Shown one piece after another: positions 8,860-21,516 of a stretch of DNA of 32,539 nucleotides. Location of the stretch: positions 1-32,539 of the forward strand of contig JAJZQS010000023.1 in assembly GCA_021806745.1 (NCBI GenBank), in the 5' to 3' direction. Made by a program: the position numbers and the translations under genes. The first letter of the stretch is position 1. Each line of letters begins with the position of its first letter. Under the pieces are notes generated by a model. It was given only the letters and a program-made list of their open reading frames with translations. It had not been told where the DNA came from and ran no database searches. The DNA comes from a bacterium. Lineage in GTDB: Bacteria > Elusimicrobiota > Elusimicrobia > UBA1565 > UBA9628.

Positions 8860-10029
8860 ATGCCCCTGCTCGACAAAGCCGCCGACGAATTGAATTGGAT
8901 GTTCCCGACTTTGCCGTGGACCGTGCGCCTGAGCTGGCGAGGCCAGAGCCGCCCGATCGGACGCGGCCCGGAGAGAGTGGAGATGGCCTGCAAGACGGAG
9001 GAATCCCTGCGCGCGCTGGCCGCGGGGGACCTGTCGCGCTTTCTTGATCACTATGTGCTTGGCGACGCGGACCTCAACGGCGACATGTACGCGTTCGTCG
9101 GCGCGCGCAATCACGTGCGCCGCGACGAGCTCTGGCGCATCCGCTGGAAGTACCAACTGCGCTACTTGTGGACCGCGCTGTTTCCCTCCTCGGTGAGGCG
9201 TAAGCTGAGGGCGGTCAGTTCCCACTATGATCTGCCCAACGAATTCATCCTGTCCTACCTGGACACGCGCACGCGGGCGTACTCGTGCGCGATGTGGGAT
9301 TCGCCCGAGACGATCGGCGACCTGAGCGACCAGACGCTGGAGGACGCTCAGCACAACAAGTTCCAAATGGCGCTCGACGAACTGCAGATCCAGCCCGGCG
9401 ACCGCTTCCTCGACATCGGCTGCGGCTACGGCTACGCGGTCCACCTCGCCGAGACCAAATACGGTTGCCGCGACGCGCTGGGCATCACGCTGTCGCAGAA
9501 CCAGATCGACGAGGGCTACTCGAAAAATCTCAAGCTCCTGCACTACAAGCAGCTTCCCGCCGACGGAAGCTTCGACAAGATCTACACCTGCGGCATGATC
9601 AGCCATCTCGATCGCTCCGAGATCGAGCAGTACTACCGCCATGTTTTCGGGCTGCTGAAGTCCGGAGGCAAGGTCTGGTTTCACGCGATCATCCCGCCGG
9701 CCAATTCCGCCGGGCTGACCAACTACACGACGATTTCCGGCACCTTCAGCCAGAAGTATGTTTTCCCGGACCACTTTCAATTCCCCGTCCATGTTCATCT
9801 GAAAATGATCGAGAAGATGGGGTTCCGGGTCAAAAAAATCCATTTCCGATACGGGCATTACGCCAAAACCCTGCGGCACTGGTATAAGCGTTATGTCGAG
9901 AATTTGCCGCGCACGCGGGCGATGATCACTCCGGTCATCGAACGCGCCTGGCATCTGTATTTGACCTACGCGTCCGTCGTCGACGGCCCCAATTCGGTGG
10001 TCAAGCAGATCGTCTGCGAAAAGGCCTGA
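8860..10029 (+). CDS. Cyclopropane-fatty-acyl-phospholipid synthase-like SAM-dependent methyltransferase
   Basis: 389 aa; SSHYDLPNEFILSYLDTRTRAYSCAMW, SAM motif FLDIGCGYGYAVHLAE, GITLSQNQ. Confidence 0.88.
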   Translation: MPLLDKAADELNWMFPTLPWTVRLSWRGQSRPIGRGPERVEMACKTEESLRALAAGDLSRFLDHYVLGDADLNGDMYAFVGARNHVRRDELWRIRWKYQLRYLWTALFPSSVRRKLRAVSSHYDLPNEFILSYLDTRTRAYSCAMWDSPETIGDLSDQTLEDAQHNKFQMALDELQIQPGDRFLDIGCGYGYAVHLAETKYGCRDALGITLSQNQIDEGYSKNLKLLHYKQLPADGSFDKIYTCGMISHLDRSEIEQYYRHVFGLLKSGGKVWFHAIIPPANSAGLTNYTTISGTFSQKYVFPDHFQFPVHVHLKMIEKMGFRVKKIHFRYGHYAKTLRHWYKRYVENLPRTRAMITPVIERAWHLYLTYASVVDGPNSVVKQIVCEKA

Positions 10030-10871: not shown

Positions 10872-10889
10872 CGGCAAATCCGGGCGCGC

Positions 10890-12647
10890 CTACGGCAGCG
10901 CCAAGCCGCAGTCGAGGCCGTCCTTGACCACGGCTCGGATTTCGGCGGGCGAGGAGGCCGGCGCGGGATCGGCCAGCCGCAGCATCAGCGAGCGAAGCCC
11001 GGGATCGTCGGCCCGCGCGGAAAGCGCGCGCAGGCGGGCGGCGGTTCGACGCGCGTCTTGGGGGCGTCCGTCGACGCGGTCGAATTCCATCCGGATGCAC
11101 AACGACTTCAGCGAGTCGGGGCGAAGCGCCTCGGCCTGGCGGAGATAGGACCAGGCGGCGGGGCGCTCGTCGCGCACGGCCGCGGCTCCGGCCAGCACCA
11201 GGAGCGTCCAGTCCGGATGATGCTCCGGTCGCGCATGGGCTTGGGCGAAAAGCGCCGCGGCCCGCGCCTGTTCGGGATGGCCGCGTTCCAGCAGCATGCC
11301 GGCGTATGTCGTCCAGAGGACGTCCGTGTATTCCGGCATCAGCGCCGTCAGCCCGTAGATGAGCGGCTTGAGGGCCGCGTCGGGCACGCCGCGACGAAGC
11401 TGAGCGGAAATTCGCCCCAGCGGGTCGTGGAGAATCGGGTAGTAGTCGTGGCCGACGACGCGTTCGGCCCGCTCGAAATACCAAAGAGCCCGGAGCGGCT
11501 CGCCTCCGTATGCGCACACGCGCTCCAGCCCGGCCAGTCCCGCGATGGAGCCGGGCTCGCGCGCGAGCAACTGCGCGAACGCCGTCCGCGCTTGGGGCGC
11601 ATCCGCGGCGGAAAAGGCGCGCTCGCCGCGCCAATAGTCGGCGGCGATGGGCGCCGATGCGGCGGCGGAATCCTGCTCGCGGGCCGAAGCGAGGCGGCGC
11701 AGGCGTTCGGCCTCGGGTAGCAGCAGAACGCTCTCGTCGTCTCGAGAGAGCACCGCGAGGCGCCGCAGCGCGTCGAGGCGCGCCGCGGCGCCCGCGCCGT
11801 CCAACGCCGCTCGAGCGTCCGCGCGCCATAAACTCCGTCGCAGGGCGCGGCATCGCGGCGCTTCGCGAGGAGTCAGCGCCAGCGCGCGCGCGAAAGCGGC
11901 GCGCGCGAGCGCGTTCTGACCCAGGCGCAAGCGCGCGTCGCCGAGAAGAGCGTAGAGATCGGCCGCGACGGCCGAGCCGCGGCCCGCGTTCGCCCAAACT
12001 TCGACTTTGCGGGCGAATTCCGAGAGCGTGCGCGGGTCGGCGCCCTTTTTCAGCAATTCGCGCCCGAGCCCTTCGACGATCTCCCTCGAGAGCGGCGGGC
12101 CGTCCGGGGCCGCGCGCAGGGAAGCCGTCAGGGCTTTCAGTTCCGAGTCGGCTTGAGCCCGGTCGCCGAGAGCCAAGTCGAGCTCGGCGCGCTCAAGGAC
12201 GAGCAGAGGTTCGCCCGGGCAGCGGCGCGCACCCTCATCGAGAGTGCGCCTTGCTTCGTCGAGACGGCGGCGGTCGAGGAGGATGCGCGCAGACAGCGCG
12301 TAGGCGTGCGACAGGTACGGCTCGCGCCAGCAGCCGCCGTCGTCGGTCGGGCTCGCGCGCCCCCGCGCCTTCCGATAGCGTTGAAGCGCGCCGTTCGCGT
12401 CGCCCTCGGACTCGAGCATGAGCCCCAGCCCCAGTTGCGTCATCACGCGGCCCGAGGCCAGGAGTCGTTCGCGTTTTTTTCCTTCCACGCGCTCGCCGCC
12501 GGGGCGGCCGGGCGTGAGCCAATCGAAGGCCAGACGCAGGTCGCGGCTCGCCAGCGCGGCGGCCAGCAGCGCGAGAGCCGCCGCGGTCCAGGCGGCGGCG
12601 CGGCGTCGACGCGGCGCGGCGTCAGTCCGCGGCGGTTGTTCCGGCAT
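10890..12647 (-). CDS. TPR-rich protein with N-terminal membrane anchor
   Basis: ORF 10890..12785; likely ATG at 12647 (MPEQPPRTDAAPRRRRAAAWTAAALALLAAALA); repeated alpha-helical TPR-like units. Confidence 0.75.
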   Translation of the reverse strand: MPEQPPRTDAAPRRRRAAAWTAAALALLAAALASRDLRLAFDWLTPGRPGGERVEGKKRERLLASGRVMTQLGLGLMLESEGDANGALQRYRKARGRASPTDDGGCWREPYLSHAYALSARILLDRRRLDEARRTLDEGARRCPGEPLLVLERAELDLALGDRAQADSELKALTASLRAAPDGPPLSREIVEGLGRELLKKGADPRTLSEFARKVEVWANAGRGSAVAADLYALLGDARLRLGQNALARAAFARALALTPREAPRCRALRRSLWRADARAALDGAGAAARLDALRRLAVLSRDDESVLLLPEAERLRRLASAREQDSAAASAPIAADYWRGERAFSAADAPQARTAFAQLLAREPGSIAGLAGLERVCAYGGEPLRALWYFERAERVVGHDYYPILHDPLGRISAQLRRGVPDAALKPLIYGLTALMPEYTDVLWTTYAGMLLERGHPEQARAAALFAQAHARPEHHPDWTLLVLAGAAAVRDERPAAWSYLRQAEALRPDSLKSLCIRMEFDRVDGRPQDARRTAARLRALSARADDPGLRSLMLRLADPAPASSPAEIRAVVKDGLDCGLALP

Positions 12648-12703
12648 CCCGGTATTGTCGTATAGCGCGTCCGTCCGCGCAAGGCTGACGGCGCTTTCGC
12701 GCC

Positions 12704-14674
12704 CTAGCGCAGCGACATCGCGCACTCGTAGGCTTCGCGCAGCGCGCTGGTGATGTTCGCGTTGTGCCCGGGTTCGTCGCGGCACGCTCCGACGCTCGCG
12801 AAGGCGATGGACAGACGGCGCAGCGTCTCGCGCGGGCCCGGGCGCGGGTCGTGGCCCGCGGCGACGACGACCGTCGCGGCCGGCACGCTCCGGCGCCGGC
12901 CCCCGGCGCGATCGCAGATCTCGACTTCTCCGGGAGACACGCGTACGAGTTCGACGGACTTCAAGGCTTCCACGCCGGCGTCCTTGAGTTCATTCATCAG
13001 GACCCAGCGGGTCGTCCAGCCGACTTTGTGCGCGAGCTTGCGGCTGGACCGCTGGAGGATGGTCACGCGCGCGCCGGGGCCGCCGAGGCGGGTCAGGAAT
13101 TTCGCCGCGTCGCAGGCCACGCCGCCCCCTCCGACGACGACGGCCGGAAACGCGACCGGCCGCGCTCCTTCCAGCACCTCGCGATAGCCGAGCACGTGCG
13201 CGCCGTCCGCTCCGGGTACGCCGTCCAGCCGCCGGGGCGCGCCGCCGACCGCGACGACGGCGAAATCCCACGCCTCCTGCGCCGCGTCGTGGTCCTGGAA
13301 CGCGCAGTTGAGCCGGATCTCGACTCCGGCGCGACGAGCTTCGTGCGAGTAATAGCGGACCGTCTCGGCGAACTCTCCTTTCCCGGGCACGAGCGCGGCG
13401 GCGTTGAGCTGGCCGCCGAGGCGTTCGGAAGCTTCGAACAGCGTTACCCGGGCGCCGCGCCGCGCCAGGAACAGAGCCGCGCCCAGGCCGGCGATCCCGC
13501 CGCCGATCACGGCGACGCGGCGAGGGCCCTCGAAAGGCGGGTAGACCCCCTCGTTCGGCTTCGCGCAGTCGGGGGCGACGCTGCAGCCGACCGGCTCGCC
13601 GCTGGAGAAGATGAAGTCCAGGCAGCTCTGGTTGCAGGCGATGCAGGTGTTGATCTGCTCGAAGGCTCCGCGGCGGGCTTTGTCGGCCAGCGCGGCGTCG
13701 GCCAGGAACGGCCGTCCCATCGCGATCACGTCCGCGGCGCCGTCTTCCAGCAGGCGCTCGGCCAGGCGGGGGTCGTTGATGCGGTTGCTGACGGCGAACT
13801 TGAGCGCCGGGAATCGGGCGCGCAGCCGCGCGGAGACTTCGGCGAACGCGGCGCGCGGCACCGACATCGAGATGGTCGGGACCGAGGATTCGTGGCAGCC
13901 GATGCCGACGTTGATCAGATCAGGACCGAACGGGATCAGGAGCTCGACGAGGGCGTCGGACTCCGCGCTCGTCAGTCCGCCCGCGATCAGGTCGCGACAG
14001 GGCACTCGGAAGATCAGCGGATAGCGCGGTCCCACGCTTGCGCGCACGGCCTCGGCGACCGCCAGCGCGAAGCGCGAGCGGTTTTCGAAAGAACCTCCCC
14101 AGCGGTCCACGCGGCGGTTGAAGACCGGAGCCAGGAATTGATGGACGAGAAATCCCTGCGAAAAACACAGTTCGACGGCGTCGTAGCCGACTTGCGCGGC
14201 GCGCGCGGCGCAGGCGGCGTAGGCGCGCACGGTCGCCGCGATGCCGTCTTCGTCCAGAGCGCGTGGCGTGTAGGGAATTTCGGGAGCGCGTCGCGGCGAA
14301 GACGAAACCAGCCCCGCGTGCGACGCGTGGCGTCCGAGGTGAAGAATCTGCAGGGCGATGCGGCCGCCTTCCGAGTGCACCGCGTCGACGATCCCGCGGT
14401 GGCGCGGAATGTCCTCGTCTTGCGCCAGCGCGAAGCCGCTCGGCGTGGATTTCCCGGCGGCGTCGGGGCTGCAGCCGGCGGTCACGATCAGGCCGACGCC
14501 CAGCCGCGCGCGTCGCGCGTAGAAGCGCGCCAGGCGTTCGTATTGCGCGGGGTCGTCGTCTAGGCCCATGTGCAGCGAGCTCATCAGCAGGCGGTTGGGC
14601 AACTCCAGCGAGTTCAGGCGCAGAGGGGAGAATAATCGCGGCAAAGCCGGGGCGGCGCGCGAGGCTTCGCTCAC
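12704..14674 (-). CDS. Old-yellow-enzyme/2,4-dienoyl-CoA reductase-like NADH:flavin oxidoreductase with [4Fe-4S] and FAD/NAD domains
   Basis: GTG start at 14674 overlaps fabG-like stop; LFSPLRLNSLELPNRLLMSS, RWGGSFENR, cluster motif CIACNQSCLDFIFSSGEPVGC (C-x2-C-x3-C-x11-C), VAVIGGGIAGLGAA. Confidence 0.92.
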   Translation of the reverse strand: MSEASRAAPALPRLFSPLRLNSLELPNRLLMSSLHMGLDDDPAQYERLARFYARRARLGVGLIVTAGCSPDAAGKSTPSGFALAQDEDIPRHRGIVDAVHSEGGRIALQILHLGRHASHAGLVSSSPRRAPEIPYTPRALDEDGIAATVRAYAACAARAAQVGYDAVELCFSQGFLVHQFLAPVFNRRVDRWGGSFENRSRFALAVAEAVRASVGPRYPLIFRVPCRDLIAGGLTSAESDALVELLIPFGPDLINVGIGCHESSVPTISMSVPRAAFAEVSARLRARFPALKFAVSNRINDPRLAERLLEDGAADVIAMGRPFLADAALADKARRGAFEQINTCIACNQSCLDFIFSSGEPVGCSVAPDCAKPNEGVYPPFEGPRRVAVIGGGIAGLGAALFLARRGARVTLFEASERLGGQLNAAALVPGKGEFAETVRYYSHEARRAGVEIRLNCAFQDHDAAQEAWDFAVVAVGGAPRRLDGVPGADGAHVLGYREVLEGARPVAFPAVVVGGGGVACDAAKFLTRLGGPGARVTILQRSSRKLAHKVGWTTRWVLMNELKDAGVEALKSVELVRVSPGEVEICDRAGGRRRSVPAATVVVAAGHDPRPGPRETLRRLSIAFASVGACRDEPGHNANITSALREAYECAMSLR

Positions 14675-15435
14675 GCGGAAAGGCCGCCGTCGACGACGAG
14701 GACTTGGCCCGTCACGTAGCCGGCCGCGGGGGAAGCCAGGAACGCGGCGCATTGCGCGACCTCCTCGGCGCGCCCCAGACGCCCCAGCGCGATCATCCGG
14801 CGCGGATCGGCCGGGGTTTCCTCGGACTTTCCGGCGGCGGAGCCGCGCAGCATGTCGGTATCGATGAATCCCGGCGCGACCGCGTTCACGCGGATCCCGT
14901 GGCGGCCGAGTTCGCGCGCGAGCACGCGAGTCAGCGCGATCAGGCCGCCCTTGGCCGCGGCGTAGTTGGCCTGGCCGGGAAGTCCGCGCAGACCGCTGAG
15001 GGAGGCCACGTTGACGATGCAGCCGCGGCGGCGGGCGATCATCGCCGACGCGGCCTCGCGCGCGCAATGGAACGCTCCGTCCAGGTTCGTACCCAGGACT
15101 TCGCGCCAGTCCTCGGTCGACATCACCGCGAAGGGGCGGTCGCGCAGGACGCCGGCATTGTTGACCAGAGTGCGCACCCAGAAGCCGCGCGCGCGAATCT
15201 CGGCGAACATCGCGCGTACGGCTTCGCGGTCGCCGACGTCGGCGCGCAACGCGTCGGCGCCCGCGCCCTTTTCGCGGACCAGGCGGCAGGTCTCGCCGGC
15301 GGCCTCGGCGTCGGCTTTGTAGTTGACGAAGACCTGCGCGCCGCGGGCGGCCAGGGCCAGAGCGATCGCGCGCCCGATGCCGCGTCCTCCGCCGGTCACG
15401 AGAACGGCGTCTTTAAGCGGCGACGGGATCGTCAT
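14671..15435 (-). CDS. 3-oxoacyl-ACP reductase (FabG-like SDR)
   Basis: 254 aa; VTGGGRGIGRAIA, NNAG, YAAAKGGLIALTRVLARELGRHGIRVNAVAPGFIDTDM. Confidence 0.94.
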   Translation of the reverse strand: MTIPSPLKDAVLVTGGGRGIGRAIALALAARGAQVFVNYKADAEAAGETCRLVREKGAGADALRADVGDREAVRAMFAEIRARGFWVRTLVNNAGVLRDRPFAVMSTEDWREVLGTNLDGAFHCAREAASAMIARRRGCIVNVASLSGLRGLPGQANYAAAKGGLIALTRVLARELGRHGIRVNAVAPGFIDTDMLRGSAAGKSEETPADPRRMIALGRLGRAEEVAQCAAFLASPAAGYVTGQVLVVDGGLSA

Positions 15436-15436
15436 C

Positions 15437-16642
15437 TCAGGCGTCTCCTCGCTCCAGATGAAGGACGCCGTAGCGCCCGTCCGATTCCAGGCCCGAGACC
15501 AGCGCCGCCGCCCCCGAAAGCGCGCCCCCTTGCGCTCGTTCGCGTACGGCTTGGGGCGCGTCGTGAGCGGTGTGGCGCGTGGGGGGGGCGCGTCGCGCGC
15601 GCAGGCACGCGGCGGCCAGCGCCGCCTGTAGGAGGCCGGTCCAGCACTCGCCTTCTCCTGAAAATGAACGCGGCGCGCAAAAGAGCGTGGGCGGATCGGC
15701 GTCCTTTGCCCATAAGCTCAGCGCGTGGGCCTCGGCGAGTTCGTGGGTTCGGGCGCCGCCGCCCGAGCAAGCCGACAGCAGCGCGACTTCGCTGCGCGAG
15801 AGGCCGCCTTCGGCGAGCAGCCGCGTCCAAGCGCCGAGAAGACCCTCGCCCCACGGACCGCCGCCCAAGCGGCCGCAGCGCCAGCCGCGCACGCGCGCGT
15901 ACGCGGCGGCTCCCCGAGCGCGGGCGGCGTCGGCGCGCTCGAGTACGAGCGCGACCCCGCCTTCCGAAGGGATAAGTCTCCCCGGCGTTCGCCCGAAGAA
16001 CGCCGGGGCGGGGCGCGCGCAATCTTCGCCGTGCTCGGCGCGAAAAGAATAGAGCGCGAACTTTGACAAGATCTCGGCGGCCGTCACGACGGCGGTCCGT
16101 GCGCGGCCCAGGCGCAGAAAGTCGTAGGCGCGGCCGACGGCTTCCAGCGCGGCCAGGCTTCCCGAGGCCAGCGTCGTGCTGGGGCCGCGCAGGCCGAAGC
16201 GGATCGCGATCTGGCCGCAGGAGATGTTGCGCGCCATCCATGGGAAGTTGGCGGGGTTAAGAGCGCGCGGCTTCCCATCCAGGATCGGCTGGGTGAAGCG
16301 CAGCATCGAGGTTCTCTCCGCGCGCGAGGTGGCGAAAAACACCGCGGTGCCGTCCCGGTCGATCCCGCCGTCGGCAAGTCCGGCGTTTTCAAGCGCCTGG
16401 CCCGCCGCGCACGTCGACATCGCCATCACGCGGTCGACCTGGCGGAGTTGGCGCTCGGTGAAGAATCGTTCTTTCGGGATGACGCGTGCCGCGCCGATCA
16501 CGGCGCCCGCGCCCGGCGGGTCCTGCTCCGCGGGCCACGGCGCGTACGCGCTCGCGTCCGAGCTCGCGGACTCGAGTACGGCGTCGATGCCCAGGCCATG
16601 CGGGCCGACGACGCCGACGCCGGTGATCCAGACCTCGGACAC
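15437..16642 (-). CDS. Beta-ketoacyl-ACP synthase-like protein lacking the catalytic triad (chain-length-factor-like pseudo-KS)
   Basis: 401 aa thiolase-fold KS homologue (VWITGVGVVGPHG; GPSTTLASGSLAALEAVG; PSEGGVALVLE) with Ser at the Cys position and no matching His residues. Confidence 0.88.
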   Translation of the reverse strand: MSEVWITGVGVVGPHGLGIDAVLESASSDASAYAPWPAEQDPPGAGAVIGAARVIPKERFFTERQLRQVDRVMAMSTCAAGQALENAGLADGGIDRDGTAVFFATSRAERTSMLRFTQPILDGKPRALNPANFPWMARNISCGQIAIRFGLRGPSTTLASGSLAALEAVGRAYDFLRLGRARTAVVTAAEILSKFALYSFRAEHGEDCARPAPAFFGRTPGRLIPSEGGVALVLERADAARARGAAAYARVRGWRCGRLGGGPWGEGLLGAWTRLLAEGGLSRSEVALLSACSGGGARTHELAEAHALSLWAKDADPPTLFCAPRSFSGEGECWTGLLQAALAAACLRARRAPPTRHTAHDAPQAVRERAQGGALSGAAALVSGLESDGRYGVLHLERGDA

Positions 16643-16645
16643 GGC

Positions 16646-17878
16646 TCAGCTCTCCCCGTCCCAGCGCCGCAACGCGACGCACGAGCAGGCGCCGCCGAAG
16701 CCGAACGACTGCGAAATCGCCGTACGGATGGAGGCGCGGCGAGGCTCGCCCTTGACCAGGTCCATGTTCAGGCCTTCGGCGTCGCCGCGCGTGCCGGGCG
16801 TGGGGGGCACGAGGCCGGTTTTGAGCGCCAAGATCGTCGCGACGGCCTCCAAAGCTCCGGAGGCGCCCATGCAGTGGCCGATCGCGGCTTTGTTGGAGTT
16901 GGCGAGGATGCGCGGCGCGCGCGCGCCGAAGACCGCCTCGACGGCGCGGATCTCGGTGGCGTCGTTGTATCGCGTCGCCGTGCCGTGCGTGTTGACGTAG
17001 TCGACGGCCTCCGGAGGGACGCCCGCCTCCTCGAGCGCGCGGCGCATCGCCAGCGCTTCGCCGGCGCCGTCTTCGGAAGTGGCGGTCAGGTGGTGGGCGG
17101 TGTTGCTGAGCCCGTAGCCGAGAACTTCGGCCAGGATTTCGGCGCCGCGCGAGAGCGCGGACTCGAGCGTTTCCAGATAGAGCGCGCCTGCGCCCTCGCC
17201 GATGAAAAATCCGTCGCGTTCGCGGTCGAAAGGTTTGGCCGAGGAGACGGTGATCGCGAACATCGAGTTGAATCCGCCGTGAATGGATTCGGCCAGCACG
17301 TCGCCGCCGCCGGCGAGGGCCGCGTCGCAGGCGCCCAGGCGGATCATGTCGAACGCGTGGCCGATCGCGTCCGTCGAAGAAGCGCAGGCGGTGGAGATCA
17401 GGCCCGAGGGCCCGGTCAAGTTGTGGCGTTCGACGAGAAAGCTCAACTGGTATCCCGGGCGCGCGGCGGTCACGAGTCCGGCGGAGGGGCGCGGGCCGCC
17501 GCCGAGGTAGTCGCGGGCGATGGCCATCTGCTCGGCGGCTCCCGCGCACAGCATGCCCAGCGCGCAACCGACGCGATCTTCGTCGGAGAACTTGGGGCCG
17601 ACTCGGGCCGCGCGCAGGGCCTCGTCGGCGGCCAGCGCCATGAAGAAGGCGGAGTCTTCCGCCGGATCGCCGCAGGCGCGGCGCAGTTCGGCGTCGGCGT
17701 AGAGCGATGGGGGCACCTCGGCGCCGAGGCGGCTTCGGTAGGGCGTGGAGTCGAAGCGTTCGATCGGCCGCGCGGCCGAATCGCCGCGCAAGAGCGCCTT
17801 CCAGTACGCGTCGATGCCGCGTCCGAACGCGGTGACGGCGCCAAGGCCCGTGGCGACGACGCGCCGGGCGCTCATCAC
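16646..17878 (-). CDS. Beta-ketoacyl-ACP synthase (FabF/KSII-like), intact catalytic residues
   Basis: 410 aa; STACASSTDAIG, NTHGTATRYND, NSNKAAIGHCMGASGALEA, QSFGFGG. Confidence 0.95.
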   Translation of the reverse strand: MMSARRVVATGLGAVTAFGRGIDAYWKALLRGDSAARPIERFDSTPYRSRLGAEVPPSLYADAELRRACGDPAEDSAFFMALAADEALRAARVGPKFSDEDRVGCALGMLCAGAAEQMAIARDYLGGGPRPSAGLVTAARPGYQLSFLVERHNLTGPSGLISTACASSTDAIGHAFDMIRLGACDAALAGGGDVLAESIHGGFNSMFAITVSSAKPFDRERDGFFIGEGAGALYLETLESALSRGAEILAEVLGYGLSNTAHHLTATSEDGAGEALAMRRALEEAGVPPEAVDYVNTHGTATRYNDATEIRAVEAVFGARAPRILANSNKAAIGHCMGASGALEAVATILALKTGLVPPTPGTRGDAEGLNMDLVKGEPRRASIRTAISQSFGFGGACSCVALRRWDGES

Positions 17879-18339
17879 GCGCCGGCCCCGCCCAGTCGCG
17901 CGGGATCGATCGAACTGATCGCGAGGTCGACGGTCGCGGCCTTGAGGCCATGCTCGTCGAAGGCGAACCCCGACGCGCGCGCGAGCCCGCCGAACGGCGC
18001 GTGCAGCGCTATTTCGAGGCGCACGGTCGTCTCCGGCCGCGTCGGCCGATGGAGCAGGCAGCGGCGCACGGCGGCGAGCACGCCCACCTCGGCGTTCGCC
18101 GACGGACGCCCCGCCGCGATCGCGACGCCGGCCAGTTGAGCGACGGCCTCGATCAGGAAAATTCCGGGCACCACCGGCAGTCCCGGAAAATGCCCGGCGA
18201 TGTGCGGGTGCTCGCGGCTCCAGCGCGCCTCTCCGACCGCGCGCCCGCCGTCGATTTCGGCCGAAAGCAGGAACAGCGCCGCGCCGCGGTGCGGAAGCAG
18301 GCGCTCGATTTCGGACCGGGAGAGGCGCCGTGCGCTCAC
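17875..18339 (-). CDS. 3-hydroxyacyl-ACP dehydratase (FabZ-like hotdog)
   Basis: 154 aa; LLPHRGAALFLLS, HIAGHFPGLPVVPGIFLIEAVAQLAGV. Confidence 0.92.
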   Translation of the reverse strand: MSARRLSRSEIERLLPHRGAALFLLSAEIDGGRAVGEARWSREHPHIAGHFPGLPVVPGIFLIEAVAQLAGVAIAAGRPSANAEVGVLAAVRRCLLHRPTRPETTVRLEIALHAPFGGLARASGFAFDEHGLKAATVDLAISSIDPARLGGAGA

Positions 18340-18668
18340 ATCTCTTCGGAGCGGCTGAAGTCCATCCCCGAGAGGTCCATCTCCAGAAAACGCTGGGCGG
18401 CCTCGGGGCCGAACTGCCGCTGGATGTAGACCGCCAGAGAGCGCAGCGACTCCAGGGTCTTGAGGTTGAATTGGTCCGGGATCGACACGCCCATCAACTC
18501 GTGCAGCGTGGCCAGGGCGTCGAGGGCCTCGATCGAGTCCAGGCCGATTTGCGCGATCAGGTTCTTCTCGGGATCGATTTTGACGTCGTCGCCGAGCTTG
18601 AGCACCTGGGCGATGAAGGAGGCGAGCTTGCGCTCAAGGGCGTCGCGCACGGCGTCCGCGTCGGTCAT
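18336..18668 (-). CDS. Acyl carrier protein
   Basis: 110 aa; 4'-phosphopantetheine site IGLDSIEALDALATL; SD GAGGAAGG upstream; stop overlaps dehydratase start. Confidence 0.93.
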   Translation of the reverse strand: MTDADAVRDALERKLASFIAQVLKLGDDVKIDPEKNLIAQIGLDSIEALDALATLHELMGVSIPDQFNLKTLESLRSLAVYIQRQFGPEAAQRFLEMDLSGMDFSRSEEM

Positions 18669-18805
18669 GGGCCTTCCTCAGACGGCGGTGCAGTCTAGGA
18701 CATTCGGCTCCGGTTCGTAAAGCCGCGGATAAGGCATGCGTTAGGTCGCCCGCGAACGGCCGCGGGCGCTTCCGTTGCTTAGCTTGATTACATCGGAGGA
18801 GACCA

Positions 18806-19615
18806 ATGAAAAACAAGCTTGCATGGGTATCCGTGACGTTTGTCGTTTTCGCGCTCGCGTCCGCCGTCCGGGCCGACGACGCTCCACCCTCGACCGCCGC
18901 CCAGATTCGAAAAATGGACAAAGGCCCTGATTCGATCGATGTATCGAATTATCCGCCGGAGCAGCAGGAAAACTACAAGGTGTTCGCTTCGAAATGTTCG
19001 CAGTGCCACACGCTGGCGCGGGCCATAAACTCCCCGTACGTTTCCCGGGAGGAGTGGTCCGCCTACGTCGCGAAGATGTCGCAGAAGAAGGGTTCGGGCC
19101 TACGCGGCGACAGCGCGCGAGTGGAGAAACTCCGGAGGGATATCATCAGCTTCTTGGCCTACGATTCCTCGGTCCGCAAGAAAGACATCGCGGGACCGCG
19201 CACGATCGACGTGTCGAATTACCCGCCGGAGCAGCAGGCCAATTATCTCGTGTTCGCCGCCAAATGCTCGAAATGCCACTCCCTGGCCAGGCCGATCAAC
19301 GCGCAGTATGCCCTGCCGGAAGAATGGACGGCCTACGTCGACAAAATGGCCAAGAAAAAGGGCTCGGGGCTCATGGGCGACAGCGCGGAGATGAAGAAAA
19401 CCCGCGAGCAGATACTGAGCTTCCTGATCTACGATTCCTCGGTCCGCAAGAAAGCCCTCATCGAGCGTAAAACCGCGGCGAAGTCCCGTTATTTGGGAGC
19501 GTTCAAGCCGATGCTTTCCAGGAACGCGTCCTCGTTGGGCGCGCGGCCGAGGAAAGCCTTCAGCGAGTCCATCTCGTCGCGCGAGGAGCCGCGTTCCAGG
19601 ATTTCGGCGCGGTAG
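18806..19615 (+). CDS. Exported dihaem cytochrome c-like protein with two tandem domains
   Basis: Signal peptide MKNKLAWVSVTFVVFALASAVRA; CSQCH and CSKCH haem motifs in 90-aa repeats; strong SD GGAGGAG. Confidence 0.88.
   Translation: MKNKLAWVSVTFVVFALASAVRADDAPPSTAAQIRKMDKGPDSIDVSNYPPEQQENYKVFASKCSQCHTLARAINSPYVSREEWSAYVAKMSQKKGSGLRGDSARVEKLRRDIISFLAYDSSVRKKDIAGPRTIDVSNYPPEQQANYLVFAAKCSKCHSLARPINAQYALPEEWTAYVDKMAKKKGSGLMGDSAEMKKTREQILSFLIYDSSVRKKALIERKTAAKSRYLGAFKPMLSRNASSLGARPRKAFSESISSREEPRSRISAR
18935..19450 (+). repeat. Intragenic tandem duplication, 270 bp (90 aa) period
   Basis: IDVSNYPPEQQxNYxVFAxKCSxCHxLARxIN...EEWxAYVxKM...KKGSGLxGDSA...YDSSVRKK occurs twice; matching points 18941 and 19211. 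Confidence 0.9.
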
Positions 19616-21516
19616 CGGCGGCCGACTTCCGGGTTCAGCAGACCCTTGGCCTTGAACACGCTGAACATGTCTTGCGCGTACACTTTCGACCACAGGTAGC
19701 CGTAGTAGCCGGCGTCGTAGCCGCCCATCAGGTGGCCGAAGCTGGCTTCCGGGTGGGTGCCGGGAGTCATCGGAATCAGGCTGACCGCCTCCATCACGCG
19801 CGCGTACTGCTTCGTGGTGTCCGACGGCGGGCGGCGGGAGTGGTAGTCCATGTCGACGATGCCGAACAGCAGTTGGCGCAAGTTGACCAGCGCCACGTCG
19901 GCGTTCTTGGCCGCGATCATCTTGTCGAGCAGGTCCTGGGGCAGCTTCTTGGAATGGTCCTTGTAGTAGCCCGACAGCGACTGCAAGACCACGGGGTCCC
20001 AAACCCAGTTCTCGAGCATCTGAGACGGCGCCTCCACGAAGTCGCGCGCGACGTTGGAGCCCGAAAAGCGGCCGTACTTGGTCTTGCTGAGCGTCTGGTG
20101 CATGATGTGGCCGAACTCGTGGAAAATCGTCTCGACTTCCTCGTGGTCGAGCAGCGACGGGCGGTCGGCCGAGGGCTTGTCGAGGTTGGCCACGATGGCC
20201 GACACGGGCTTGCGCACGGAGCCGTCGGCCAGGCGGCGCTCGGTGATGAGGCTGAAGGCGGCCGCGTGCGAGTACTTGCCCGGGCGCGGGAACAGGTCCA
20301 TGTAGAAGTAGCCGATCGGCGCTCCGCCGGAGGCGTCAGTGATCTCGTAGAGCTTGACGTCGGGATGCCAGACCGAGGCGTGGTCGATCCGGCGGAAATG
20401 CAGACCCAGCATCCTCTGGTAGACGCCCAGCATCTGCTCGACGACGAGGTCGGCCGGGAAGTACTCGCGCACGCGCTCCTCGTCGACCTGGTACTTGGCC
20501 TTGTGCAGGAGGTCGTCGTAGTAGCGCCAGTCCCAGGCGTGGATGACTCCGTCCGAGGCGCGTCCCTCCATCGCGCGCTTGAAGGCGCGCAGCACCTCAA
20601 GCTCTTCTCTGCCCCCGGGCGTGAGGCGACCTCGCAGCCGGGCCAGGAAGGCGTTGACGGTCTCGGGGGTCTTGGCCATGTTCGGTTCGATGGCGAACTG
20701 CGCGTGGGAGCGGTAGCCGAGCAGGCGCGCGGCCTTCAGGCGCAGGGCCAGCGCCTCTTTGAAAATCGGCAGGTTCTTGGCGGCGGCGCGGTCGTCGAAA
20801 GCGGTTTCAAGACGCCGACGCGCGTCGGGGTTGGTCGCGTTCTGCATGAACGGGAAATAGGTGGGATAATCGACGCCCACTTTGTACAGGTCTCCGATCT
20901 TGGGGAGTTTGGCGACGAAGTCATCGGGCAGGCCGGCGAGGTCGGCGCTGGACATCAGCACGAACGATGAATCCTCGGCGATGTTCTTGCCGAAGTCGGC
21001 CTCGAGCTTGGCGATGCGCTCGCGAAGGTCCCGGACCTCTTTGCGCGTGGCGTCGGGCAGGCCGAAGCCGGAACGCTTGAAGTCGAGCAGCGTCTTGTCG
21101 AGCAGGCGCGCATCCTCGCCGGCCAGCGGCTCCTTTTTGGCGGCGTAGGCGACCACGGCCTTGTCGAGATCCTCGCGGCTGTAGACGTCGACGTCGAACT
21201 GGGAAATCTCCACGTCGCAGGCGTTGGCGGCATCGCGCACGGCCGCGGAGGTGGAGACCTGCTCCAGGAACACGTCGGGAGCGGCGTCGTCGGAAAGTTC
21301 GAACATCGCGCGGTCGAGCGCGGCCACGGTGTTGTCGAAAGTCCGCTGCGCGTCGGGGACGGCGGCGATCTTGGCCAACTCGGCCTTGGCGGCGTCCACG
21401 GCGGCGCGGCAATGAGCGGTCAATTGTCGGGGACCGCGATCGAAGACGAGCGCCGGGTCGGGAGTGAAGGCGGCCAAAGACGGAGAGGCCAGAAGGGCGG
21501 CGGCGAAGAAGATCAT
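19489..21516 (-). CDS. M3-family zinc oligopeptidase with signal peptide
   Basis: 675 aa; VETIFHEFGHIMHQ (HExxH), MIFFAAALLASPSLAA leader; TAGGAT 6 nt before ATG. Confidence 0.92.
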   Translation of the reverse strand: MIFFAAALLASPSLAAFTPDPALVFDRGPRQLTAHCRAAVDAAKAELAKIAAVPDAQRTFDNTVAALDRAMFELSDDAAPDVFLEQVSTSAAVRDAANACDVEISQFDVDVYSREDLDKAVVAYAAKKEPLAGEDARLLDKTLLDFKRSGFGLPDATRKEVRDLRERIAKLEADFGKNIAEDSSFVLMSSADLAGLPDDFVAKLPKIGDLYKVGVDYPTYFPFMQNATNPDARRRLETAFDDRAAAKNLPIFKEALALRLKAARLLGYRSHAQFAIEPNMAKTPETVNAFLARLRGRLTPGGREELEVLRAFKRAMEGRASDGVIHAWDWRYYDDLLHKAKYQVDEERVREYFPADLVVEQMLGVYQRMLGLHFRRIDHASVWHPDVKLYEITDASGGAPIGYFYMDLFPRPGKYSHAAAFSLITERRLADGSVRKPVSAIVANLDKPSADRPSLLDHEEVETIFHEFGHIMHQTLSKTKYGRFSGSNVARDFVEAPSQMLENWVWDPVVLQSLSGYYKDHSKKLPQDLLDKMIAAKNADVALVNLRQLLFGIVDMDYHSRRPPSDTTKQYARVMEAVSLIPMTPGTHPEASFGHLMGGYDAGYYGYLWSKVYAQDMFSVFKAKGLLNPEVGRRYRAEILERGSSRDEMDSLKAFLGRAPNEDAFLESIGLNAPK

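What the first reader, a model, noticed from the sequence alone, without database searches (positions are those of the whole stretch)
15437..16642. KS paralogue with all three catalytic positions replaced
Hand alignment to the adjacent intact KS: STACASSTDAIG aligns with LASGSLAALEAVG (Cys to Ser, codon at 16157-16159); NTHGTA aligns with SACSGGG (His to Cys); NKAAIGHCMGASG aligns with PRSFSGEGECWTG (His to Glu). Thiolase-fold landmarks are kept, there is no frameshift, and it sits between active KS and KR genes. Established CLFs typically have Gln at the Cys site. Inference: a structural partner that sets chain length or docks the active KS.
Basis: partly seen in the sequence, partly recalled or inferred. 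Interest (0 to 1): 0.7.

Follow-up and report, generated by a model that had tools for sequence, protein, structure and literature searches.

The report
Chain-length-factor-like dead ketosynthase, Elusimicrobiota
A bacterium of the poorly known phylum Elusimicrobiota carries, next to a working chain-building enzyme (a ketosynthase), a look-alike without any of the three catalytic residues; it belongs with the known 'chain length factor' partners of such enzymes, here in a small six-gene fatty-acid/polyketide-like cassette for which no description was found.

Summary
It sits in a tightly packed six-gene operon: ACP, FabZ-like DH, active KS, pseudo-KS, KR, FadH/OYE-type flavoenzyme. One orthologue exists (67% identity, same operon, same Ser/Ser/Glu; NG86 dN/dS 0.21), so it is conserved, not decaying. 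A predicted model has the full thiolase fold (pLDDT 85, pTM 0.90). In a tree of 38 KS/CLF sequences it groups with chain length factors (99/99; 96 without catalytic columns). Recent duplication of its neighbour KS is rejected (AU p 0.00045). Conservation peaks at residues 98-180, the KS-partner face and gate in known KS-CLFs. Other CLF-like proteins here also lack Gln at the Cys site, and three others carry Glu at the second His site. Best reading: a CLF, obligate partner of the adjacent KS. The heterodimer itself is not shown: a fused AlphaFold2 run failed. Ordinary in kind. Fresh points are the phylum, the non-Gln site and the pairing with a FadH-type reductase in a cassette absent from most of the genus.

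The parts
15437..16642 (-). pseudo-KS / CLF-like protein, 401 aa
   Evidence: Pfam ketoacyl-synt 8e-21; AF2 pLDDT 85, pTM 0.90; groups with CLFs 99/99
16157..16159 (-). Ser162 codon at the catalytic Cys position
   Evidence: identical in orthologue L009
15764..15766 (-). Ser293 codon at the first catalytic His position
   Evidence: Ser in orthologue
15653..15655 (-). Glu330 codon at the second catalytic His position
   Evidence: Glu also in L009 and in the CLF-like proteins of L054, L061, L063
15668..15670 (-). Arg325 codon at the conserved KS Lys position
16103..16351 (-). residues 98-180, most conserved stretch; covers the gate helix and dimer-interface segment of known KS-CLFs (R110/M113/T117 align with actCLF F109/T112/F116)
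   Evidence: 75/83 identical to the orthologue against 191/318 elsewhere, Fisher p 4e-8; not so in the active KS
16646..17878 (-). active KS, Cys-His-His intact, presumed partner
   Evidence: TIGR03150 9e-102 (below its curated cut-off), Pfam; motifs
17875..18339 (-). FabZ-like hotdog dehydratase
   Evidence: FabA-like domain 1.9e-9; FabZ 1.3e-14
18336..18668 (-). acyl carrier protein (GLDSIEALD)
   Evidence: PP-binding 1.9e-8
14671..15435 (-). ketoreductase, FabG/SDR type
   Evidence: adh_short_C2 3.4e-67; 3oxo_ACP_reduc 1.5e-78
12704..14659 (-). FadH/OYE-type flavoenzyme with a 4-Cys cluster motif; candidate enoyl/dienoyl reductase; start codon uncertain
   Evidence: Oxidored_FMN 5.6e-62, BaiCD-like 2.1e-112
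12713..18723 (.). six-gene block shared with L009 (72% DNA identity); similarity stops at its edges

Best explanation
The gene encodes a chain-length-factor-like (KS-beta) subunit. It folds as a full ketosynthase but cannot catalyse; it pairs with the KS encoded just upstream to make a KS-CLF heterodimer. Only the KS side condenses malonyl-ACP with the growing chain; the CLF side supplies the opposite wall and floor of the tunnel at the dimer interface and so limits how long the chain may grow. After each round, KR and DH of the operon reduce and dehydrate; the FadH-type flavoenzyme may then reduce some double bonds, giving a partly unsaturated acyl chain on the operon's ACP. Shown: intact gene, loss of the triad, operon, conserved orthologue, predicted fold, kinship with CLFs. 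Inferred: heterodimer, tunnel role, chain-length control, product class.
For: Triad replaced. Adjacent active KS, 3 nt apart, in an operon with ACP/DH/KR. Orthologue at 67% with the same residues; dN 0.26, dS 1.24, ratio in the range of the other five genes. AF2 pLDDT 85, pTM 0.90 with both thiolase halves; actinorhodin CLF 1tqy_B aligns at Z 48.4 with 25% identity, the highest identity of the 50 entries listed. Tree: 11 CLF-like rows split from 27 KSs at 99/99, and at 96 with catalytic columns removed; pairing with its neighbour KS rejected, AU p 0.00045. Conservation peaks at the partner-facing segment only in the pseudo-KS. Good tblastn scores outside the phylum include CLF halves of fused Streptomyces KS-CLF proteins. 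KS-CLF as active KS plus KS lacking catalytic residues, with the tunnel at the interface: PMC12664062.
Against: No physical evidence of pairing; the fused KS-pseudo-KS model failed (pLDDT 35). CLF branches are long, and shared loss of catalytic constraint can draw them together. By fold alone, FabF KSs score as high as or higher than CLFs (Z 49-51 against 48.4). Gln, important in other CLFs (Q166A in Lysobacter abolishes pigment, PMC3691225), is absent. A chain-length role is not tested at all.
Confidence: 0.84

Rival explanations
1. A non-elongating partner: like AmcG of cispentacin synthesis (a 'cyclization factor'), it pairs with the KS but shapes ring formation or another late step, or only stabilises the KS, rather than counting chain length.
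For: AmcG pairs with a KS and lacks functional motifs (PMC10698177). KS and pseudo-KS both match the AmcF model below its cut-off. The gate residues R110/M113/T117 differ from the aromatic CLFs compared.
Against: The operon has KR and DH, which fit repeated reducing rounds, and none of its six genes looks like AmcC, AmcD or AmcH. The protein is full length; the paper says the cyclization factor lacks some secondary structure.
Confidence: 0.1
2. A decaying duplicate of the neighbouring KS without function.
For: All catalytic residues lost; only 2 of 341 Elusimicrobiota genomes have it.
Against: No stop or frameshift, dN/dS 0.21, whole motifs identical in an orthologue at 67% identity, tight coupling; clade with the neighbour KS rejected.
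Confidence: 0.02
3. An active enzyme of another chemistry: a KSQ-like decarboxylase for priming, or a DpsC-like Ser-based acyltransferase.
For: Ser162 sits at the nucleophile position; DpsC-like priming KSs use Ser-His-Asp (PMC12664062).
Against: No Gln, and neither His is present.
Confidence: 0.03

Closest known systems
Actinorhodin KS-CLF (1tqy) and aromatic type II PKS CLFs
   Same: Full-length KS fold, encoded next to the KS, Cys and both His replaced; Z 48.4; same side of the tree
   Different: Gln at the Cys site there, Ser here; Asp and Arg at the His sites there, Ser and Glu here; operon with DH and flavoenzyme instead of cyclases
Highly reducing KS-CLFs: Iga11-Iga12 (6kxd), ApeO-ApeC
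   Same: KS plus inactive partner working with ACP, KR and DH
   Different: ApeC keeps only one thiolase half (PMC8358021) while this is full length; no second KS or second ACP here; a FadH/OYE reductase is added
AmcF-AmcG (cispentacin), KS plus 'cyclization factor'
   Same: KS with a motif-less partner
   Different: AmcC/D/H-type genes were not seen in this operon; direct comparison with AmcG not made
Fused KS-CLF proteins on Streptomyces plasmids (L061, L063) and Elusimicrobiota KS-CLFs (L050-L052, L054)
   Same: CLF part lacks Cys; Glu at the second His site in L054, L061, L063
   Different: Fused or truncated; His, Ala or Phe at the Cys site

Membership tests
CLF / KS-beta (broad) | KS homologue lacking the catalytic Cys and His residues | tested here: met
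   Ser162, Ser293, Glu330
CLF / KS-beta (broad) | Encoded beside a Cys-His-His KS with an ACP in the operon | tested here: met
CLF / KS-beta (broad) | Thiolase/KS fold | tested here: met
   AF2 pLDDT 85, pTM 0.90; Z 48-51 to KS and CLF structures
CLF / KS-beta (broad) | Groups with CLFs rather than with active KSs | tested here: met
   99/99; 96 without catalytic columns; long branches are a caveat
CLF / KS-beta (broad) | Heterodimer with the KS | tested here: inconclusive
   Fused AF2 model failed, pLDDT 35 with 5 rows
CLF / KS-beta (broad) | Control of chain length | not testable with these tools
   needs enzymology
Gln-type CLF of aromatic and aryl-polyene PKS (and KSQ) | Gln at the catalytic Cys position | tested here: not met
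   Ser162; so not filed in this subgroup
ApeC-type truncated CLF | Second thiolase half mostly lost | tested here: not met
   401 aa, both halves modelled
DpsC-like priming acyltransferase | Ser-His-Asp triad | tested here: not met
   no His at either site
AmcG-type cyclization factor | Sequence kinship with AmcG | not tested
   no AmcG sequence was compared

The most novel reading that the evidence does not exclude
The six genes form a distinct, laterally moving type II synthase: a KS paired with a Ser/Ser/Glu CLF bearing an Arg in the gate, and a FadH-type dienoyl reductase that removes double bonds in the middle of the cycle, so that the product is a chain with set, non-conjugated double bonds unlike aryl polyenes.
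Probability: 0.25. Interest if true: 0.5.

Novelty: new member of a known kind. Interest (0 to 1): 0.3.

Why it matters
It extends KS-CLF pairs to Elusimicrobiota, a phylum not named among the 14 in a survey of 6352 KS-CLF pairs (PMC10132072), and adds CLF-like proteins that do without the Gln thought to help priming. The operon is short enough to express whole, so its product and the need for Gln can be tested directly.

Tried and rejected
Fused KS-pseudo-KS AlphaFold2 run (in-frame read-through of the KS TGA under code 4, to imitate the heterodimer): failed with 5 rows, pLDDT 35; adding more KS rows made MAFFT put the orthologue's pseudo-KS on the KS half, so no conclusion is drawn. Search of viral contigs with the pseudo-KS alignment: none. 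One scan of GTDB contigs: only L009. Profile search of 341 Elusimicrobiota genomes: two true members (835 and 849 bits), then a drop to 103 bits and below, mostly FabF-length frames. The first tree had one mis-framed row (C156); it was rebuilt. Papers joining ketosynthase, chain length factor and dienoyl-CoA reductase: none in the library. Origin of PDB 9s5h, a KS-like pair of chains, not found in papers. Base composition: operon genes 64-74% GC against 69% for the window, no clear foreign mark.

Full report
Observation. The gene named in the finding lies on the minus strand, 16642 to 15437, starting with GTG and coding 401 residues without a break. It matches the Pfam ketosynthase N-terminal domain at 8e-21; the C-terminal domain is below threshold, 0.004. 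phmmer aligns it to FabF structures over nearly its whole length. Three alignments agree that the catalytic Cys is Ser162, the first His is Ser293 and the second His is Glu330. The conserved KS lysine is Arg325, and the C-terminal GFGG gating loop is missing.

Surroundings. Reading on the minus strand, the operon is ACP (18668-18336), FabZ-like dehydratase (18339-17875), KS with intact Cys/His/His (17878-16646), pseudo-KS, FabG-type ketoreductase (15435-14671) and a FadH/OYE-type flavoenzyme with a four-Cys cluster motif (14659-12704). Neighbouring genes overlap by 4 bases or lie a few bases apart. No malonyltransferase, thioesterase or starter ligase was recognised in the operon, so FabD and a release step would have to come from elsewhere (inference).

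Origin and spread. The orthologue's record is an Elusimicrobia bacterium MAG, and its genome is in the same genus as the window's. Of 341 genomes of the phylum only two hold the pseudo-KS. The second genome carries the same six genes in the same order, 72% identical in DNA from 12713 to 18723, and the similarity ends there. In the window the operon sits between lgt and a peptidase gene (19489-21516, an M3-type reading of mine by eye); in genus-mate G201 these two genes are 20 bases apart, and they are close together in several others. In the second carrier, lgt and the peptidase gene lie on one contig and the operon on another. So the six genes behave as a cassette gained at different places (inference from these arrangements).

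Selection. Between the two carriers the pseudo-KS shows dN 0.26 and dS 1.24 (NG86), ratio 0.21; KS 0.19, flavoenzyme 0.22, ketoreductase 0.31, dehydratase 0.38, ACP 0.12. It is kept like its neighbours. Conservation is not even: residues 98-180 are identical at 75 of 83 sites against 191 of 318 elsewhere (p 4e-8), while the same stretch of the active KS is not better conserved than the rest (53/82 against 245/328). The stretch was chosen after looking at the alignment, so the p-value is generous. In known KS-CLFs this stretch holds the gate helix and the strand and loops that face the partner (established knowledge of the fold). The residues aligned with actinorhodin CLF F109, T112 and F116 are R110, M113 and T117; the role of those three actCLF sites is from my own knowledge of the CLF literature.

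Structure. AlphaFold2 with 25 rows gives pLDDT 85.4 and pTM 0.90, with both thiolase halves. Structural matches are FabF-type KSs (Z 49-51) and actinorhodin CLF (Z 48.4, 25% identity); fold alone does not separate KS from CLF. A run on KS and pseudo-KS read as one chain failed, so the heterodimer is untested.

Family. A tree of 38 KS and CLF domains puts all 11 CLF-like rows on one side at 99/99, and at 96 when the catalytic motifs are dropped; forcing the pseudo-KS with its neighbour KS is rejected, AU p 0.00045. The split between KS and this CLF is therefore old, or the branch lengths mislead; long branches are present. At the Cys site these CLF-like proteins carry Gln (aromatic), His, Ala, Pro, Phe or Ser; at the second His site Glu occurs in the pseudo-KS pair and in three others.

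Mechanism. The best reading is a KS-CLF pair in which only the KS condenses, the CLF completes the tunnel and limits length, and KR and DH work after each round. In the literature the KS-CLF is an obligate heterodimer of an active KS and an inactive KS lacking catalytic residues, with the chain growing into a channel at the interface (PMC12664062). Highly reducing versions with KR and DH exist (PMC8358021). The Gln of the aryl-polyene CLF is needed for pigment in Lysobacter (PMC3691225); its absence here suggests priming without CLF-dependent decarboxylation (inference). The flavoenzyme could reduce 2,4-dienoyl intermediates, which would give non-conjugated double bonds; this rests on family resemblance only.

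Verdict. It is a CLF of a non-Gln type in a phylum not listed in a large KS-CLF survey (PMC10132072), in a cassette with an unusual reductase. Interest is modest.

Noticed in passing
L050:6694-8616, L051:6229-8127, L052:1136-3112 (minus): Elusimicrobiota of another genus carry a KS fused to a shortened CLF-like half with Phe at the Cys site, recalling ApeC's single thiolase half but fused.
   Followed up: partly
L054:4805-7965: KR, short CLF-like protein (Ala at the Cys site, Glu at the second His site) and active KS in a row: a second, separate KS-CLF operon type in the same family.
   Followed up: partly
L055:845-2059: A further inactive KS-like protein (Pro at the Cys site), several kb from a KS with an intact Cys.
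   Followed up: no
L078:8787-15635 (own genome, contig C74): Large Pfa/secondary-lipid-synthase-like protein of about 2280 aa with two KS domains in tandem; the second looks like a CLF.
   Followed up: partly
window 10872-19488: About 8.6 kb between lgt and a peptidase gene that are 20 bp apart in genus-mate G201; holds the operon, a TPR protein gene and a cytochrome-like gene.
   Followed up: yes
window 18806-19615: Cytochrome-c-like protein made of two similar halves, each with a CxxCH motif, divergent from the operon.
   Followed up: no
L061:5947-8310, L063:6617-8983: Streptomyces plasmids encode a fused KS-CLF (about 787 aa) in a cluster with two more KSs, a KS III-like protein and a protein annotated 'thermostable hemolysin'.
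   Followed up: no
window 8860-10029: Cyclopropane-fatty-acid-synthase-like methyltransferase gene overlapping the start of lgt.
   Followed up: no
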